The notes under the pieces were generated by a model. The model did not search any database. It worked only from the letters and a program-made list of their open reading frames with translations, and was not told where the DNA came from. From contig JAAAOR010000136.1 of assembly GCA_009908735.1 (NCBI GenBank), positions 1-5,385 on the forward strand: DNA of 5,385 bases, given 5' to 3'. The translations under genes and the position numbers were made by a program. This stretch comes from Spirochaetota bacterium. Lineage in GTDB: Bacteria > Spirochaetota > Spirochaetia > DSM-27196 > PWMO01. Of this stretch, positions 1-5,385 are shown in pieces (the first letter of the stretch is position 1; every line of letters starts with the position of its first letter).

Positions 1-228
1 GCGCTGGGATTCACGATTCAGACGCTCTACGGCGTGCTCGAGAATTATTTCCTGCGTATCTCGAAGTACTTCGAGAACAACCTGCCCGGCGACCGGTGGC
101 ACATGGGACTCGTCGAGAAGATGCGCCTCGATATCCCCAACGTACGGCCGGCCTTCCTCGAAACCGACGAGCAACTCCGCGAAGTCAGGCAGATCTTCAG
201 GTTTCGGAGCATCGCGGATGCCCTTTGA
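1..228 (+). CDS. HepT-like (HEPN) ribonuclease toxin, 3' part, probably defective
   Basis: The reading frame enters from the left edge and 75 residues are visible. The stretch around LYGVLENYFLRISKYFE, followed by LPGDRWH and IPNVRPAFL, resembles the HepT-like family paired with MNT nucleotidyltransferases. In that family HEPN RNases cleave RNA with an R-x4-H-x-Y motif, and the antitoxin inactivates them by AMPylating the tyrosine. Here the Arg is at visible residue 63 (RQIFR), but the positions expected to hold His and Tyr are Phe68 and Ser70, and the protein stops at residue 75. The tail RFRSIADAL looks like the usual C-terminal end joined directly to the motif region, which suggests an in-frame internal deletion of a few tens of codons. 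The last 11 bases overlap the next gene. The family assignment is fairly secure from memory of relatives. Loss of activity is inferred. Confidence 0.7.
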   Translation, partial: ALGFTIQTLYGVLENYFLRISKYFENNLPGDRWHMGLVEKMRLDIPNVRPAFLETDEQLREVRQIFRFRSIADAL

Positions 229-616
229 CCCCGAGCGATACGCGGCCGGACTCCGCCGCGAGAATGAGCGCGAGGCGGCGGCCATCCGCGAGTCGGTCCG
301 GCGCGCCCGGGCCGAGACGCACAGACTGGCCGCCGAGATCGGCGCCGCCGACGCCGGGGTCCGCGTTGTTTACCTCTTCGGTTCACTGGCCTCCGGCGAG
401 CCGCGCCACCTGAACTTCGACATCGACCTATCGCTCGACGGCGGTGACGTGTATGCCGCAGAGGAGATCACCGAGTCCTCTCCATTCGAGGTGGACGTCG
501 TCTCGCTTGCGCGTCTCCCGGAGGAAACGCGCACGCGGATCAGGGAGTCGGGCGAAGCGCTCTTCACGCGCGGTGGGAGGAGTCGCGCTCATGGCCAGAA
601 GACAGGACGAGTTTGA
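218..616 (+). CDS. MntA-like nucleotidyltransferase antitoxin
   Basis: This is a complete 132-aa minimal nucleotidyltransferase of the MNT type. In the known MntA/HepT systems such proteins transfer AMP onto the HepT tyrosine. The N-terminal part (residues 5-45) is a charged helix. The active site follows: FGS at 54-56, then FDIDLS with D68 and D70, and a third acidic residue D93 in FEVDVV. The spacing is GS-x11-DxD, one residue longer than the textbook GS-x10-DxD. The ATG is preceded by CGGAG at 205-209 with 8-base spacing, and MPFD is a typical beginning for this subfamily. It overlaps the HepT-like gene by 11 bases and the ADP-ribosyltransferase-like gene by 26 bases, so the three are probably translationally coupled. 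With the HepT-like partner apparently broken, this antitoxin may be orphaned or may serve another partner; that is inference. Confidence 0.85.
   Translation: MPFDPERYAAGLRRENEREAAAIRESVRRARAETHRLAAEIGAADAGVRVVYLFGSLASGEPRHLNFDIDLSLDGGDVYAAEEITESSPFEVDVVSLARLPEETRTRIRESGEALFTRGGRSRAHGQKTGRV
575..582 (+). promoter_or_regulatory. Ribosome binding site of the ADP-ribosyltransferase-like gene
   Basis: GGGAGGAG lies 8 bases before the ATG at 591 and inside the end of the nucleotidyltransferase gene. It is the strongest Shine-Dalgarno match in the operon. It decides the start against longer upstream readings of the same frame (open from 444), which would run far into the nucleotidyltransferase gene. 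Confidence 0.8.
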
Positions 617-1175
617 CAGCTGGTTCGGGCACAGTGTTGTGACGGATGATCTCGGAACCCCGATCTTCGTCGCCCACGCCACCGACGATCCGACCTTTGT
701 TCCCGCACTGCGCTACGGCATGGGGCCCCACTTCTCGGATGAGGAGACGGCGACAAACCGGCTCATACAGCGAGCCGAAGACGGGGACGAAGTCGACGAA
801 GGTTCGCTGTACTGGGCCTATCTCCGAATCGAGCGGCCGCTGCGAATGCGCGACGTGCACTTCGATGAGCTCTGTACCTTCATCGAAGGGGTGCTCGACA
901 CCGGCGTAATTAGCGAATCTGAGGTGCGGGCGTGCTGCGGAAGCCGCGAGAGCTGGTACAAGGTGTCATCGCAGCAGAATGCGGACCTCATAACGCAGGT
1001 TGTGGGATTGCTTCGCGACGGGGGCTTCGATGGCATTGCATACGAGAATCACATCGAGGGCGGCGGTTCGTTGACCTGGATACCCTTCACCCTGGAGCAG
1101 ATTCTGGAAGCTCCGGAAAGCCCACCTGCTTCAGATAGTTCCATACCGCGTCGTACCATTCCGTCTCTCGGGTAG
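591..1175 (+). CDS. ADP-ribosyltransferase-fold protein (MuF/polyvalent-protein type), putative effector
   Basis: The 194-aa protein has the layout of ADP-ribosyltransferase-like domains found in phage MuF and polyvalent proteins. The opening is FDSWFGHSVVTDDLGTP (residues 8-24). VAHAT (27-31) stands in place of the usual VYHGT and gives the candidate NAD-binding H29. It is followed by GPHFSDEETATNRL (45-58), YWAYLRIERPL (74-84), and a C-terminal core with FDGIAYEN (146-153), EGGGS (156-160) and TWIPFTLEQI (162-171). E152 or E156 could be the catalytic acidic residue, but this cannot be settled by eye. Such enzymes transfer ADP-ribose from NAD to a target; the target here is unknown. No membrane segment or signal peptide is seen. 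After residue 174 a 20-residue tail of Pro/Ser/Arg follows, encoded opposite the 3' end of the convergent helicase gene. The gene is third in an overlapping set with HepT-like and MntA-like genes. A decayed relative lies at 4652-4792. Confidence 0.72.
   Translation: MARRQDEFDSWFGHSVVTDDLGTPIFVAHATDDPTFVPALRYGMGPHFSDEETATNRLIQRAEDGDEVDEGSLYWAYLRIERPLRMRDVHFDELCTFIEGVLDTGVISESEVRACCGSRESWYKVSSQQNADLITQVVGLLRDGGFDGIAYENHIEGGGSLTWIPFTLEQILEAPESPPASDSSIPRRTIPSLG
1087..1175. repeat. 89-base convergent gene overlap, repeated at 4704-4792
   Basis: This segment codes for the end of the ADP-ribosyltransferase-like protein on + and of the DUF2075 protein on -. The same segment, without any insertion or deletion, is at 4704-4792. 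By hand count 75 of 89 bases match, with a 33-base identical core starting at the CAG of LEQ. Both stop codons sit at equivalent places in the two copies. Confidence 0.85.
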
Positions 1176-3111
1176 GATCGTCGGCGTCGCCGGGAGGGAC
1201 GGCGATCACCATCCCCTGCCGGGCGCGTGTGAGAAGAACCCGATACGCATTCTTCAGATAGCGTTTTCGGTCTTCCTTCTTCACGTTGATCCAGCGGTTG
1301 CCGCGAAACTCACGGTGCACCCAGTCGTCGCCCGAGGGAAAGAAGTCCGCATCCCATGCCACGCAGGCCCAGTCGAGTTCGAGGCCCTGGATCTGGAACT
1401 CCGTGGCCACGTCCTCGCAGTAGTACGAGGAACGCACATCGTCTTTTCCCGAGAGAAACCAGTGGACAGGGTCGACGGTCGTTCGCACGTCGATGGCGAG
1501 GGGCTTTAACCGCTCTGCGTGCGATGAGGCGATGATGCCATAGCGCTCCGACCCCCGGGCCTGCGCTTTCAGCCATCTCCGAGCTCCGGCAAGATCGCGA
1601 GTGATCACGATCGGGTAGTCGTCGCGGATGCGTTCGAGTGTTCCTCGCGCTGCCTCGATCTCCATGTCGAGCACCTGGCGAACGAGCTCTGATACCCGTT
1701 CCGCCCGAAACGATCGCATTGAGACGCCGAGGTGCAGATCGCGGTTGAAGGTCGCTTGCCCGTTGTGCGACATGCGTGCCAGCTCGGACGAGGCCTGGTA
1801 CTCACTCTCGATCAGTCGGTCAGAAACGTGGGCGTGCCAGTGCGGGAAACGTCGTTCCATTGCCCGAAGCCACTCGCCGATTCCGGCCTCCCCGGTGTTG
1901 ATCTCCTGGCCCCCGCCCACGAGACAGACGATGACGCCCCAATCTCTGTGTCGATCAATACATGAGATCAGGAACTCGGGTTCGGACATCTCGAAGCCGG
2001 GTCGATTCCGCTTCTGCTGCATGAACCGCGTTGTCTGCTCGCGGTTCCAGGCACGCTGAGCCTCATCGAACAGGGCTACGTGATCGGCGGGCGGGCGGGG
2101 ATCCTCGAGGTAGGCGTCGCGGTACTGATGCACGTTCTGAATGAAGGCTTTGACCTGGCTTTGGGCCACGCCCTTTCGGAGTGTGCGGCCCTGTTCGCGC
2201 GCTCGCCGAACCCGGTCCCGGGAAAGTGCTTCCCGCAGCACCTTCACGAGCGGGCCGTTGCCCGACAGGAATACGCTGTACAGCTGACTCTCGGCGTTCA
2301 GATGGAGTGTGGCGATGTTGAGGCCGATAAGTGTCTTTCCGGCGCCCGGAACACCGCTTACGAGGCAGAGCGCCTTCTCTCCACGTGCGCGAGCGCCCGT
2401 AATGATCTGGGAAATTGCATCCGTCGTTTCATGCAGATTCTTCGCACCGGCGTCGCTCCGAGATATCTCTGCGACCGAGTGGCCGTGATACAGAGCGATG
2501 GCCGCCTCGATGATGGTCGGGGTCGGAAGGTAGCGCCCGCGCTGCCACGTGGTAGTATTGATCGGCGATTGTCGGTTCCTGGCGCCAGAAAGAATCGCCT
2601 GGAGCACGCGAGGGAGCTCAGCGGGAGAGGTTGGGACGGGCTCGAAGACTCCGTCGTGGCTCTGCCGCAGTTCTTGCCCGCGCGCGAAGGCGGTCTCGGC
2701 CGCCGTGAGTACAAGTACAGGCGCGATTGGTGGCATGTGGCTCGGTTCGTGAAAGTTTTTCAGATCCAGAGCGTAGTCCCACACCTGGTCGTGAGCCTGC
2801 GATGTCACAGTGCGTTCGCCCACCTTGAACTCGATCACCGCGATGACCGTGGAGAAGAGCAGCACGACATCGATCCTGCTACCCATTCGCGGAATGGGGT
2901 ACTCGAAGATGATGTGGCTGGTCTGATCTGGTGATGCCGTCTTCGGCAGGTTCCCGAGCGCGTGTTTCAGGATGCCAATCTCGTGGCGCCATGCATCGAT
3001 CTGGGTCTGCTCCACGCTACCGTGACCGGCGGCACTGAGCTTTCCGATGATGGCATCGTGATCATGGTGCAGGAAACCTTCCACTGTATCCGAGTACCAG
3101 GAAGCGCCCAT
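1087..3111 (-). CDS. PD-(D/E)XK nuclease fused to DUF2075 superfamily 1 helicase
   Basis: The 674-aa protein is complete. The N-terminal part has a PD-(D/E)XK-type nuclease core: RIDVVLL with D81, VIEFKVG with E94 and K96, and QVWDYA at 109-114. The C-terminal part is a DUF2075 (Schlafen group 3-like) superfamily 1 helicase/ATPase: Walker A GVPGAGKT (253-260), Walker B LFDEAQR (347-353), a motif III-like VGGGQEI (398-404), QIQGLELDW (573-581), and motif VI-like YRVLLTRARQG (623-633). It is therefore predicted to bind ATP, move on nucleic acid and possibly cut it. The family has no settled cellular role; a defence role is often suspected. The ATG at 3111 is the first start after an in-frame stop upstream; no good Shine-Dalgarno is visible. 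The gene converges on the ADP-ribosyltransferase-like gene and overlaps it by 89 bases, with no room for a terminator between them. A much reduced relative is at 4704-5015. Confidence 0.9.
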   Translation of the reverse strand: MGASWYSDTVEGFLHHDHDAIIGKLSAAGHGSVEQTQIDAWRHEIGILKHALGNLPKTASPDQTSHIIFEYPIPRMGSRIDVVLLFSTVIAVIEFKVGERTVTSQAHDQVWDYALDLKNFHEPSHMPPIAPVLVLTAAETAFARGQELRQSHDGVFEPVPTSPAELPRVLQAILSGARNRQSPINTTTWQRGRYLPTPTIIEAAIALYHGHSVAEISRSDAGAKNLHETTDAISQIITGARARGEKALCLVSGVPGAGKTLIGLNIATLHLNAESQLYSVFLSGNGPLVKVLREALSRDRVRRAREQGRTLRKGVAQSQVKAFIQNVHQYRDAYLEDPRPPADHVALFDEAQRAWNREQTTRFMQQKRNRPGFEMSEPEFLISCIDRHRDWGVIVCLVGGGQEINTGEAGIGEWLRAMERRFPHWHAHVSDRLIESEYQASSELARMSHNGQATFNRDLHLGVSMRSFRAERVSELVRQVLDMEIEAARGTLERIRDDYPIVITRDLAGARRWLKAQARGSERYGIIASSHAERLKPLAIDVRTTVDPVHWFLSGKDDVRSSYYCEDVATEFQIQGLELDWACVAWDADFFPSGDDWVHREFRGNRWINVKKEDRKRYLKNAYRVLLTRARQGMVIAVPPGDADDPTRETEWYDAVWNYLKQVGFPELPESAPG

Positions 3112-3219
3112 CCGTGTTCCAGGATAGCGGAGGGAACGCTCCGTGACCAGGTGTTATGGCGGACGCCTGACTGAGCGCCACCGAGGAACTATAGCGGAGC
3201 TGTCCCTCTGCCGTTACGA
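3112..3219. other. Divergent spacer between the helicase gene and the BrnT-like operon
   Basis: No gene is visible here. It should hold the leader and promoter of the - strand helicase gene. A lone -10-like TATAGT reads on the - strand at 3188-3193, but no matching -35 is present. The 9-base direct repeat ATAGCGGAG occurs at 3124-3132 and 3191-3199, and a small inverted repeat CGGAG/CTCCG at 3128-3143 lies just before the helicase start. Confidence 0.4.
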
Positions 3220-3248
3220 TTGACATTGTATAGACAGACGATTAGCTT
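3220..3248 (+). promoter_or_regulatory. Promoter with operator-like palindrome for the BrnT/CopG operon
   Basis: A perfect -35 TTGACA is at 3220-3225. With 17-base spacing a weak -10 TAGCTT is at 3243-3248, placing the expected transcript start near 3255, only about 2 bases before the ATG at 3257. TGTATAGACA at 3227-3236 is an imperfect palindrome (TGT/ACA half-sites) between the two boxes, a plausible site for autorepression by the ribbon-helix-helix antitoxin. The operator role is inferred. Confidence 0.5.
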
Positions 3249-3256
3249 TGCGACAG

Positions 3257-3520
3257 ATGGATTTCGTTTGGGATGAGAAAAAGAACGAGTGGTTGAAAGC
3301 CGAACGATTCGTGTCTTTTGAAGAAATCTCCAAGCACATTTTGGAAGGAGACTATACCGACATAGTCAAGCACCCGAGTCGGGCCAAGCAGCGCTACTTC
3401 GTTCTGCATATTCGCGAATACACCTGGCTTGTTCCGTTCCTCATTGACGAACAGCGTCGGATCGTGTTGAAAACGGCGTTTCCAAGCCGCAAGTACCACA
3501 AGAAATACGGAGATACGTGA
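3257..3520 (+). CDS. BrnT-like toxin of a type II toxin-antitoxin system
   Basis: This is a small basic protein of 87 aa. It opens with MDFVWDEKKNEWL (residues 1-13) and has VSFEEI (19-24), a central strand YFVLHIREYTWLVPF (47-61) and an ending IVLKTAFPSRKYHKKYG (69-85). This order matches the BrnT-like toxins, RelE-fold RNases that block translation and are usually encoded just before a ribbon-helix-helix antitoxin. The ATG at 3257 is chosen over an in-frame TTG at 3248 because the family begins at this point and the TTG overlaps the predicted -10 box. The stop overlaps the antitoxin start by one base (TGATG). Base composition is clearly more AT-rich than in the flanking genes, suggesting separate acquisition. 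Family membership is well supported; RNase activity is inferred from relatives. Confidence 0.8.
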   Translation: MDFVWDEKKNEWLKAERFVSFEEISKHILEGDYTDIVKHPSRAKQRYFVLHIREYTWLVPFLIDEQRRIVLKTAFPSRKYHKKYGDT

Positions 3521-3828
3521 TGAGCAAATATGACCTCACTACGGAAGAACAGAAAATCGAAGAGCATGCAGACGAGCTCGTTTCGGTCAGCGGCGAAGAG
3601 CGTGCGGAAGTCGAGTCCATCATAGAGCATGCTCGAAAGAATCGGCCGGTGAACCTGCGGATGTCTGAATTCGATCTGGAATTGATCAAGAAGCGGGCAC
3701 AGGCAGAAGGACTGCCCTACCAAACCCTGATCAACCGGATCGTGCACAAGTACGTAACGGATCAAATGCTTGATCGAGAAGAGGTCCGCAAAGTCATCGC
3801 TGAAGCCCGCGACATGAAGGCTATATAG
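3520..3828 (+). CDS. CopG/ribbon-helix-helix antitoxin partner of the BrnT-like toxin
   Basis: The 102-aa protein has an acidic helical N-terminal half (residues 5-38), likely the toxin-wrapping part. A ribbon-helix-helix DNA-binding domain follows: strand RPVNLRMS (42-49), helix DLELIKKRAQAEG (52-64) and the second helix LPYQTLINRIVHKYV (65-79), which is a hallmark of CopG-type antitoxins paired with BrnT-like toxins. About 20 charged residues follow as a tail. The ATG at 3520 shares one base with the toxin stop and has GGAG at 3509-3512 as a ribosome binding site; a GTG one codon earlier (3517) is a less likely start. It is expected to neutralise the toxin and, with it, repress the promoter at 3220-3248. 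Confidence 0.87.
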   Translation: MSKYDLTTEEQKIEEHADELVSVSGEERAEVESIIEHARKNRPVNLRMSEFDLELIKKRAQAEGLPYQTLINRIVHKYVTDQMLDREEVRKVIAEARDMKAI

Positions 3829-3965
3829 CACGGCACCCCGCCCGGCCAAACCCGCGAACCGCGCCCGCGCGGGTGCCTTGATCCGGGTGCCGCGGCGCGG
3901 CCCGTGCTCCCCGGGTAGGGGCGTGGTTCCAGGCCTGCAACCGGGTGGTCTGACAGTCTTCGGAG
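3829..3965. repeat. G+C-rich palindromic spacer
   Basis: No gene is seen between the two toxin-antitoxin operons. The first 100 bases are extremely G+C rich and full of small palindromes: GGCACCC (3832-3838) pairs with GGGTGCC (3871-3877), CCCGCGCGGG is a perfect palindrome (3864-3873), CCGCG/CGCGG flank one base at 3890-3900, and CGGGTGCC is directly repeated at 3870-3877 and 3884-3891. There is no T-run, so it is not a standard intrinsic terminator, although it could end or stabilise the upstream transcript. Confidence 0.5.
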
Positions 3966-3994
3966 TTGACTAAGTCAAAACTTAGTCTTAGAAT
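3966..3994 (+). promoter_or_regulatory. Promoter with inverted-repeat operator for the Phd/VapC operon
   Basis: TTGACT (3966-3971) and TAGAAT (3989-3994) are separated by exactly 17 bases, making this the best promoter in the window. A perfect inverted repeat GACTAAG (3968-3974) / CTTAGTC (3981-3987) with a 6-base centre lies across it, and TTGACT/AGTCAA around 3972 forms a second overlapping palindrome. Such sites are typical for binding by Phd/YefM antitoxin dimers. The expected start of transcription, 7 bases after the -10 box, is the A of the ATG at 4001. Confidence 0.75.
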
Positions 3995-4000
3995 GGAAAT

Positions 4001-4240
4001 ATGAAGACCGTTACGACCCACCAGGCGAAAACGCACCTTTCTCAGCTCATTCGCGAAGTGCAGGCGGGGGAGACGGTCACAATTCTCAGCGGCAAGACGC
4101 GCGTGGCGCGACTTACGGGGCTTGAAGAATCCGGGCGACAGCGTCCGCGGGTTGGTACTGTCACCTCAGAGCCGGTCGGCTACACGGCGGATGCCTTCGA
4201 GCCGTTGAGCGATGACGAGCTTCGAGTCTGGGGGCTATGA
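4001..4240 (+). CDS. Phd/YefM-type antitoxin
   Basis: The 79-aa protein begins MKTVTTHQAKTHLSQLI and continues with REVQAGETVTILSGKTRVARL (residues 18-38), the standard Phd/YefM N-terminal DNA-binding and dimer fold. The C-terminal segment DAFEPLSDDELRVWGL (64-79) is the ending usual for antitoxins paired with PIN-domain toxins and would wrap the toxin active site. The start is the only sensible ATG; there is no clear Shine-Dalgarno sequence, in line with a leaderless transcript. The stop overlaps the toxin start by four bases (ATGA), so toxin translation is coupled to that of the antitoxin. It probably autoregulates through the inverted repeat at 3968-3987. Confidence 0.9.
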   Translation: MKTVTTHQAKTHLSQLIREVQAGETVTILSGKTRVARLTGLEESGRQRPRVGTVTSEPVGYTADAFEPLSDDELRVWGL

Positions 4241-4623
4241 AGGCGCTGCTTGACACCTGCACGTTCATCTGGCTCTGTGCCGAGCCGGATCGGTTGTCTG
4301 ACGCCGCGGCGCGTATTCTCGATGATACCGAGACGACACTCCTTGTGAGCGATGTTTGCGCCATGGAGATAGCGTTGAAATGGACGGCAGGCAAGCTGAC
4401 CCTTCCAGATAGCCCTCGTACGTGGGTCGAGTCTCAGGCGCAGAAGTGGTCCGTCGAGCACGTACCCCTCAGCCGGGAGCACATCTATCGGGCCACCGAG
4501 CTTGCCGACCACCACAGAGACCCCTTCGATCGGCTGCTGGTAGCTACTGCGTTGACTGTCGCTGCGACGATCATCACTCCCGACACCGCGATTCACTCGT
4601 ACCCCGTTTCCTGGCGGTGGTAG
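4237..4623 (+). CDS. VapC-type PIN-domain RNase toxin
   Basis: This is a 128-aa PIN-domain protein of usual length. It has the opening LLDTCTFIWL with D6, SDVCAMEIALKW (residues 38-49) with E44, the HHRDPFDRLLVATAL stretch (92-106) with D95 and D98, and IITPDTAIHSYPV (112-124) with D116. These acidic residues form the Mg-dependent endoribonuclease site in the VapC family, so the protein looks active. GKL at 52-54 with P57 is typical of the PIN subgroup paired with Phd/YefM antitoxins. The start ATG overlaps the antitoxin stop by four bases; a G-run lies too close to be a good ribosome binding site, which favours coupled translation. The end lies about 30 bases before the remnant of the ADP-ribosyltransferase-like gene. 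Confidence 0.92.
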   Translation: MKALLDTCTFIWLCAEPDRLSDAAARILDDTETTLLVSDVCAMEIALKWTAGKLTLPDSPRTWVESQAQKWSVEHVPLSREHIYRATELADHHRDPFDRLLVATALTVAATIITPDTAIHSYPVSWRW

Positions 4624-4647
4624 GAGCAGGTCAATGGTGGCGTCCCA

Positions 4648-4689
4648 ACCGGAGCCTACTCCTTCGTCGAAGGAGTGCTCGAGACCGGT
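4648..4689 (+). terminator. Strong hairpin after the VapC gene, terminator-like without a T-run
   Basis: ACTCCTTC (4658-4665) and GAAGGAGT (4669-4676) form a perfect 8-base stem with a 3-base loop. GAGC (4652-4655) / GCTC (4677-4680) extend it across a small bulge, and ACCGG/CCGGT flank it. No T-run follows, so a role in ending or protecting the phd-vapC transcript is only a possibility. The hairpin lies within the ADP-ribosyltransferase remnant. Confidence 0.4.
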
Positions 4690-4792
4690 GAGCTGGAAAC
4701 CTCTCACACTCGAGCAGATTCTGGAAGCTCCGGAAAGCCCACCTGCTGCAGATAGTCCCCCACCGCGCCGTACCATTCCTTCTTCCCGTTGA
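4652..4792 (+). pseudogene. Remnant of an ADP-ribosyltransferase-like gene (second copy)
   Basis: Two blocks of the protein encoded at 591-1175 can be recognised. The first, from about 4652, reads FVEGVLETG and matches FIEGVLDTG (residues 97-105 of the intact protein). The second, 4691-4792, reads SWKPLTLEQILEAPESPPA and continues to a stop, matching the intact C-terminus from TWIPFTLEQI onward. About 55 codons between them are missing and the blocks are in different frames, so the gene is dead; the first half is missing altogether. The last 89 bases are the same convergent overlap as in the intact pair. It begins about 30 bases after the VapC gene, so the decay and arrival of that module may be linked. 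Confidence 0.8.
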
Positions 4793-5015
4793 TACATCGA
4801 TTGCCGCGAAACTCGCGGTGTACCCGGTGGTCGACCGTCGTGCGAACGTCGATTGCGAGGGGCTTCCGCCGTTCAGCGTGCTCGGTCAGTACAAACACCG
4901 GCGCAACGGGTGGCCCGTGACCAGTTCGCAGGATGCCGTATTCGTCAGTCCACGCCCGTCTGAACAGATCATGTCCGTGGGCGACAAATTGGGTCATATT
5001 TTGAAGCCCGCACAC
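4704..5015 (-). pseudogene. Miniature, multiply deleted copy of the nuclease-DUF2075 gene, frame still open
   Basis: An open frame of 103 codons contains colinear pieces of the 674-aa protein encoded at 1087-3111. FVAHGHDLF may match FLHHDHDAI (weak). AWTDEYGILR matches AWRHEIGILK (40-49). PPVAPVFVLT matches PPIAPVLVLT (127-136). EHAERRKPLAIDVRTTVD matches 530-547. VHREFRGNRCIN matches VHREFRGNRWIN (598-609). WYGAVGDYLQQVGFPELPE matches WYDAVWNYLKQVGFPELPE (652-670). The Walker A, Walker B and nuclease D/ExK motifs are all gone, so no helicase or nuclease activity can remain. The stop is at the same place as in the intact gene, 89 bases inside the ADP-ribosyltransferase remnant. That all deletions kept the frame is unusual. 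No good ribosome binding site is seen before the ATG at 5015, so most likely it is a relic. Confidence 0.77.
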
Positions 5016-5161
5016 AGCCCCTCCCTCCGATTAAGAAATATAGCTTTATGAGCTTTGCAACGTAATTTGGCATTTTTTGCTATGGAATCGCCAAAAGACT
5101 CCAGATAGTCTATTAACAGAAAATAGCTCAGAAGTTTTATGCAAAAACGGGGGTACAGACA
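5016..5161. promoter_or_regulatory. AT-rich spacer with inverted repeats before the exported-protein gene
   Basis: The base composition drops sharply in AT direction after the helicase remnant, marking the likely right edge of the island. Inverted repeats TTTGGC (5066-5071) / GCCAAA (5090-5095) and AGACT (5096-5100) / AGTCT (5107-5111) are present, and a short AGCTTT direct repeat at 5042 and 5051. A weak promoter reading is TTGCAA (5055-5060) with TGCTAT (5078-5083). GGGGG at 5149-5153 is a possible ribosome binding site for the ATG at 5162. Confidence 0.45.
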
Positions 5162-5385
5162 ATGCAACAACGGTATGTAATGAGGGCACTGGGCCTTCTG
5201 TTCCTGGTAGTGATCCTGCAGCCCCTGGCTGCGCAGGATAGTCAGGAATCGCTTCTCGAGGTATTCGTCGTACCAGGGATATCGATGTACGCGGATTCGG
5301 TCGGCTTTGGCGCCACCGCCGGTGCTGCGAGCGACCTCGAAAGCCTATTCGCCCTTGAGGGACCTTTCGCACAGACAATGCTCGG
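5162..5385 (+). CDS. Exported protein of unknown function, 5' part
   Basis: The reading frame is open to the right edge (74 codons visible). It begins MQQRYVMRALGLLFLVVILQ and has the form of a Sec signal peptide: basic residues (R4, R8), a hydrophobic core (about residues 9-19) and a likely signal peptidase I site after PLAA, before QDSQE. No lipobox cysteine is seen. The mature start, LLEVFVVPGISMYADSVGFGATAG, could be the first strands of a periplasmic or outer membrane protein, but no family is recognised. The ATG at 5162 is supported by GGGGG at 5149-5153; a later ATG (5180) would also leave a signal peptide but has no binding site. It follows an AT-rich leader and is probably host chromosome, unrelated to the toxin-antitoxin genes. 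Confidence 0.75.
   Translation, partial: MQQRYVMRALGLLFLVVILQPLAAQDSQESLLEVFVVPGISMYADSVGFGATAGAASDLESLFALEGPFAQTML

What the first reader, a model, noticed from the sequence alone, without database searches (positions are those of the whole stretch)
4652..5015. Decayed second copy of the ADP-ribosyltransferase/DUF2075 pair with the same 89-base tail-to-tail overlap
Both genes of the intact pair (591-3111) have relics here in the same order and orientation. The overlap between the two stops is exactly 89 bases in both places, with about 84% identity by hand count and no indel. The two genes therefore were an overlapping convergent unit before duplication, and the unit appears to move or be copied as a whole.
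Basis: seen in the sequence. Interest (0 to 1): 0.7.

Follow-up and report, generated by a model that had tools for sequence, protein, structure and literature searches.

The report
Wrecked second copy of overlapping gene pair
This is the collapsed remnant of a second copy of two neighbouring bacterial genes that share their end sequences on opposite strands; the shared end is old and found in several relatives, but the remnant itself looks like an ordinary dead gene copy.

Summary
Confirmed in outline, wrong in one key detail. Remains of both genes of the intact pair (ART-fold gene 591-1175 +; DUF2075/Schlafen-group-3 helicase 1087-3111 -) lie at 4661-4919 in the same order and orientation: 190 of 220 bases identical in the four strongest blocks, chain score 296 against at most 47 in 200 shuffles. 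The "89 = 89, no indel" argument fails: the relic's ART-frame stop (4790-4792) lies past a 114-nt deletion junction and matches the DUF2075 interior (16/17), not the ART end (10/17). The ancestor was nevertheless very probably overlapping: the relic's ART frame stays open through 72 nt of DUF2075 tail; DUF2075 wobble positions there changed at 1/24 sites against 18/47 outside; and a codon-compatibility test finds the same convergent overlap, in one phase, in four further pairs (62-107 nt) and in none of the other 1447 combinations. The relic is as far from its neighbour (56/70) as from three other lineages' copies (55/70 each): no recent duplication of the neighbour. Mobility is unproven. The three DUF2075-frame deletions are all multiples of three, leaving a 103-aa frame for which no small relative was found.

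The parts
591..1175 (+). Intact ADP-ribosyltransferase-fold gene, 194 aa
1087..3111 (-). Intact DUF2075 / Schlafen group 3 helicase gene, 674 aa, phage-defence candidate PDC-S41, with an N-terminal nuclease-like motif D81, E94-x-K96, Q109
   Evidence: PF09848 257.9 bits; PADLOC PDC-S41 E 3.5e-277; motif residues invariant in 27 aligned rows; best PDB matches SLFN14 and SLFN11
1087..1175 (.). 89-nt convergent overlap, ART codon position 1 opposite DUF2075 position 1 (phase 123:132)
   Evidence: ORF list; codon-compatibility test
4661..4688 (+). Relic of ART residues about 96-105 (877-904)
   Evidence: 25/28 identical
4689..4775 (.). Relic of the ART tail and the DUF2075 C-terminus with most of the ancestral overlap (1072-1158); DUF2075 stop kept at 4704-4706
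   Evidence: 76/87 identical
4776..4828 (-). Relic of DUF2075 (1273-1325, residues 596-613) after a 114-nt deletion; holds the accidental ART-frame stop 4790-4792
   Evidence: 46/53 identical
4829..4880 (-). Relic of DUF2075 (1470-1521, residues 531-548) after a 144-nt deletion
   Evidence: 43/52 identical
4881..4919 (-). Relic of DUF2075 (2701-2739, residues 125-137) after an 1179-nt deletion that removed the helicase core
   Evidence: 28/39 identical, continuing the DUF2075 frame
4920..4944 (-). Possible relic of the DUF2075 N-terminal region; placement ambiguous
   Evidence: two rival placements, both in frame
4704..5015 (-). 103-aa open frame left by the deletions (the collection's own call is 97 aa, P0133)
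   Evidence: only the window itself matches; no family at E 0.1 in Pfam, NCBIfam or PADLOC

Best explanation
4661-4944 is a decayed copy of an ART/DUF2075 convergent pair, lying in an array of toxin-antitoxin-like genes beside an intact copy. Shown: block homology, at least four internal deletions (167, 114, 144, 1179 nt), an ART part out of frame, loss of the DUF2075 nuclease-like motif and Walker A segment. Well supported: the relic's ancestor already had the two frames overlapping, and the overlap is older than the split between relic and neighbour, because it is also seen in more distant pairs; its phase is constant but its length is not (62, 86, 89, 89, 107 nt). Inferred: the relic's source had split from the intact neighbour about as long ago as the copies of other lineages, so it reached this place as a separate acquisition or an old duplication, lost selection and collapsed by deletions. 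How the intact pair works is inferred from domains only: a Schlafen-type helicase with a nuclease-like domain, probably acting on invading nucleic acid, next to an NAD-dependent ADP-ribosyltransferase-like effector, convergently transcribed and so not one operon.
For: Chain score 296 against max 47 in 200 shuffles. 190/220 identity in the four strongest blocks. The relic's ART frame is open across 4704-4775, so its ART stop lay at least 72 nt inside DUF2075. Wobble changes 1/24 in the overlap against 18/47 outside, Fisher p 0.0017; with the two strongest outside blocks only, 12/34, p 0.0087. Outside the overlap, changes favour DUF2075 position 3 (18/47 against 9/94, p 9e-5). Codon-compatibility: 5 hits in 1452 pairs, 233,772 tests, all 2 modulo 3. 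Three ART/DUF2075 pairs could be matched independently by equal longest-contig length (566035, 5579, 4763): 3 of 3 are compatible. Equidistance 56/70 against 55/70 for three relatives, 52/70 for P0015, 45/70 for the more distant P0017.
Against: The wobble test compares two lineages, and constraint in the intact lineage alone would already lower the count: at half the outside rate, 1 or fewer of 24 has P 0.04 (0.06 on the two strongest blocks), so that test is modest by itself; one of the other two plus-strand frames is also open over the 72 nt. The source genome and the relatives' contigs could not be read, so overlap there is deduced from protein tails, and P0004/P0014 lie on contigs of different listed length. 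Seven of 12 ART proteins found no compatible DUF2075 among the 121 tested, of 7998 found. The distances rest on 70 residues of a decaying sequence; the relic shares private residues with none of the five copies compared (0 of 1, 2, 1, 5 and 2 in DUF2075), so that tally does not place it more closely. Three of three DUF2075-frame deletions being in frame (chance 1/27) is not what plain decay predicts best.
Confidence: 0.82

Rival explanations
1. Duplication of the neighbouring intact pair followed by decay.
For: Both copies are in one 5.4-kb window with the same order and orientation. The intact neighbour is, by one residue, the closest sequence (56/70).
Against: Practically equal distance to P0013, P0014 and P0016 (55/70 each). 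At both positions where the neighbour has a private residue (one in DUF2075, one in ART) the relic has the residue of the other relatives; two positions are few. The neighbour is closer to P0013 (65/70) than to the relic, though decay inflates the relic's distance.
Confidence: 0.2
2. The 103-aa frame 4704-5015 is a working miniature gene kept open by selection, for instance a decoy or regulator of the full protein.
For: Three deletions in the DUF2075 frame (114, 144, 1179 nt) are all multiples of three, as are both candidate sizes for a fourth (219 or 141); the one deletion outside that frame (167 nt) is not. The frame is open, with a purine-rich stretch before a GTG start (read by eye).
Against: No small relative found (which sees only proteins of about 57-180 aa that share exact 5-residue words). 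Nuclease motif and Walker A are outside the kept blocks. Three residues invariant in the relatives are changed to unlike ones: W597, W607 and L535. Chance of three in-frame deletions is 1/27 and was noticed after the fact.
Confidence: 0.06
3. The segment is a plain DNA repeat, such as a mobile-element end, that happens to overlap the two genes.
For: A run of 36 identical bases (1095-1130) stands out in the repeat.
Against: Identity extends outside the overlap on both sides; the overlap DNA was not found in plasmids, a 25-mer of it not in viral contigs, the relic DNA not in phages; no repeat pair flanks both ends of the relic.
Confidence: 0.02

Closest known systems
Convergent overlapping gene pairs of bacteria (PMC2174442, PMC4161906; passages seen)
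   Same: Tail-to-tail overlap; phase 123:132 is the commonest convergent phase there (49% of 1218 convergent overlaps of 5 nt or more).
PADLOC PDC-S41 (phage-defence candidate)
   Same: DUF2075 protein matches over its whole length, E 3.5e-277.
   Different: The S in the name I take, from recall, to mean a single-gene candidate; here a close clade carries a convergent ART gene. None of 21 more distant DUF2075 loci shows this ART by tblastn; L005 has only about 350 bases beyond the gene.
ADP-ribosyltransferase-fold toxins of toxin-antitoxin pairs (ParT, NatT, RES-Xre, MbcT)
   Same: Predicted fold, weakly.
   Different: These stand next to a co-directional antitoxin (recalled); here the partner is a convergent helicase.
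ART-PolyVal (PF18760)
   Same: Weak match of the window protein; one relative, P0012, carries the family in the precomputed annotation.
   Different: Below the curated cut-off (19 against 31.2 bits); a stand-alone gene, not a domain of a long protein.

Membership tests
Pseudogene / decayed gene copy | Homology to an intact gene with disabling deletions or frameshifts | tested here: met
   At least four internal deletions; ART part out of frame after a 167-nt deletion; DUF2075 residues 138-530 absent
Convergent overlapping gene pair | Two intact convergent ORFs sharing coding sequence, both constrained | tested here: met
   89 nt in the window; compatible tails in four other pairs; wobble suppression in the shared part
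PDC-S41 | Full-length match to the PADLOC model | tested here: met
   Residues 1-668 of 674 on profile 1-653 of 657, E 3.5e-277
PDC-S41 | Protection against phage | not testable with these tools
   No experiment; a search for the name found no paper
SLFN-g3 helicase (PF09848) | Score above the gathering cut-off | tested here: met
   257.9 bits against 24
ART-PolyVal (PF18760) | Score above the gathering cut-off | tested here: not met
   19 bits against 31.2
ADP-ribosyltransferase fold | Structural match to solved ARTs | tested here: inconclusive
Type II toxin-antitoxin operon | Co-directional adjacent antitoxin and toxin | tested here: not met
   ART and DUF2075 are convergent
Mobile element | Flanking repeats, transposase, or recurrence on plasmids, phages or viral contigs | tested here: inconclusive
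   No flanking repeats, no transposase among the proteins scanned; ART absent from plasmids and viral contigs; four plasmid records carry distant DUF2075 proteins, 28-46% identity. The window is short and the genome is not held

The most novel reading that the evidence does not exclude
The ART gene and the Schlafen-type helicase form an unrecognised two-gene defence or conflict unit whose shared, oppositely read ends are kept by selection, tying the two genes together in inheritance and letting each transcript act as antisense on the other; the relic is then a discarded copy of a second, diverged version of the unit.
Probability: 0.2. Interest if true: 0.6.

Novelty: new member of a known kind. 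Interest (0 to 1): 0.3.

Why it matters
The relic alone is an ordinary dead copy. What is of some use is the pair: an ADP-ribosyltransferase-fold gene that overlaps, in one phase, the 3' end of a phage-defence-candidate helicase in five ART/DUF2075 pairs. In the held library no paper names both DUF2075 and ADP-ribosyltransferase or PDC-S41; five papers hold DUF2075, none about the protein by title (listings only). If the two work together, PDC-S41 has a partner in this clade that a one-gene model misses.

Tried and rejected
The '89 equals 89' argument: rejected, because the relic's ART-frame stop is downstream of a deletion junction.

ART next to DUF2075 in GTDB genomes: none in 21 loci of 43-60% identity. 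Of 47 ORFs listed just beyond the DUF2075 stops, 10 were scanned with Pfam: two NUDIX, thioredoxin/rhodanese, LysR, class II tRNA synthetase, O-antigen ligase/TPR, DUF429, SMC, and two without a family. So the ART is not a general partner of DUF2075.

ART family in sampled genomes: 0 of 6; 4 of 194 in one phylum at E 1e-3, all partial (35 to 83 of 197 positions) and in frames of 429 to 4128 aa, not followed; 0 of 395 and 0 of 398 at the stricter limit of 1e-10. These phyla were chosen only because a genome handle was at hand; the window's own phylum is unknown, so the misses say little.

A small relative of the 103-aa frame: none found. Promoter- or terminator-like sites in 3080-5385: 2 and 1 found, 1.1 and 2.1 expected from shuffles. 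Solved relatives by sequence: for ART six chains at E 0.17 or worse, none convincing; for DUF2075 none at 0.001. Paper listings were seen; of these only PMC2174442, PMC4161906 and PMC11514479 were opened, for abstract or passages.

Full report
What is there. The window is a row of toxin-antitoxin-like genes: HepT-like (1-228) and a nucleotidyltransferase with a sub-cut-off MntA match (218-616), the ART-fold gene (591-1175) and the convergent DUF2075 gene (1087-3111), a BrnT-like gene (sub-cut-off) with a CopG-type antitoxin gene (3248-3828), Phd and PIN genes (4001-4623), then the relic (4661-4944), then an AT-rich stretch and the start of another ORF.

The relic. A chained alignment that allows deletions of any length at one fixed cost gives blocks at offsets 3784, 3617, 3503, 3359 and 2180 (score 296; best of 200 single-base shuffles 47). 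The first four add up to 190 of 220 identical bases. The fifth (28/39) is weaker but continues the DUF2075 frame, with 9 of 13 residues equal to the neighbour's. A sixth is ambiguous.

The 89-nt equality. The DUF2075 stops correspond. The ART-frame stops do not: bases 4776-4792 match 1273-1289 at 16/17 and the ART end 1159-1175 at 10/17. A 114-nt deletion, whose two sides share TTCC, joined DUF2075 interior sequence to the tail, and a TGA in it happens to fall in the ART frame at the same distance.

Was the ancestor overlapping? Three lines say yes. First, the relic's ART frame is open over 4704-4775, all of it DUF2075 tail, so the ART stop of its source lay at least 72 nt inside DUF2075 (one other plus-strand frame is open there too). 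Second, in this segment the DUF2075 third positions, which are ART second positions, changed at 1 of 24 sites; in the three DUF2075-only blocks they changed at 18 of 47 (Fisher p 0.0017; leaving out the weakest block, 12 of 34, p 0.0087). Since constraint on the intact lineage alone would lower the count by up to half, the part that speaks for the relic's own lineage is weaker: P 0.04 at half the rate. Third, I asked for every ART and DUF2075 protein whether any DNA could encode both tails on opposite strands, for every overlap from 20 to 180 nt. Of 12 x 121 = 1452 pairs, 5 are possible: the window pair (89), P0003/P0013 (89), P0004/P0014 (86), P0006/P0017 (107) and P0011/P0020 (62). Three of the four new pairs share their longest-contig length, which was not used in the test. 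All five lengths are 2 modulo 3, one phase. P0017 is farther from the relic (45/70) than the near group is (52 to 56/70), so the overlap predates the relic's split. The lengths differ, so 89 is not a fixed quantity. Seven of 12 ART proteins found no partner among the 121 DUF2075 proteins tested (of 7998 found, 120 were listed).

Duplication or separate arrival? Over 70 residues the relic agrees with the intact neighbour at 56, with P0013, P0014 and P0016 at 55 each, with P0015 at 52 and with P0017 at 45; the neighbour and P0013 agree at 65. On 77 residues, ambiguous block included, the window copy, P0013 and P0014 tie at 58, P0015 has 55 and P0016, which has a gap there, 53. The neighbour's private residue in DUF2075 (1 of 1) and in ART (1 of 1) is not in the relic; but the relic shares no private residue with any of the five DUF2075 copies, so this places it outside all of them rather than near one. 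An old duplication and a separate acquisition cannot be told apart here.

In-frame deletions. The deletions within the DUF2075 frame are 114, 144 and 1179 nt, all multiples of three, and both candidates for the next (219, 141) are too; the ART-side deletion (167) is not. The chance for three is 1/27. Three ART relatives (P0005, P0007, P0009) and one DUF2075 relative (P0025) also lack internal stretches, but a protein collection favours in-frame cases. I leave this as an oddity: no small relative of the ORF was found, and it has changed residues invariant in its family.

Literature. PMC2174442 (passages seen) gives phase 123:132 as the commonest for convergent overlaps of 5 nt or more. PMC4161906 (abstract and passages seen) reports that overlaps are highly plastic. 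PMC11514479 (passages seen) uses the term phage defence candidate. No paper in the held library names DUF2075 with ADP-ribosyltransferase or PDC-S41.

Noticed in passing
4704-5015: The three deletions in the DUF2075 frame of the relic are all multiples of three, leaving a 103-aa open frame with a purine-rich stretch before a GTG start.
   Followed up: partly
P0005, P0007, P0009, P0025: Several relatives of ART and DUF2075 in the protein collection lack internal stretches without losing the frame; P0007 joins two similar IEG stretches.
   Followed up: no
1-4623: Three toxin-antitoxin-like pairs of different families (HepT-like/nucleotidyltransferase, BrnT-like/CopG, Phd/PIN) lie side by side around the defence-candidate gene.
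   Followed up: no
5016-5160: AT-rich stretch (39% G+C against 60% for the window) between the relic and the next ORF.
   Followed up: no
1095-1130 and 4712-4747: A run of 36 identical bases between intact copy and relic inside the overlap, longer than the mean identity would suggest.
   Followed up: no
L012, L013, L018 near 7960-8350: In three loci (two Winogradskyella, one Tamlana) the DUF2075 gene overlaps a convergent ORF of 128-130 aa by 9-18 nt; two of the three were scanned and are NUDIX proteins.
   Followed up: partly
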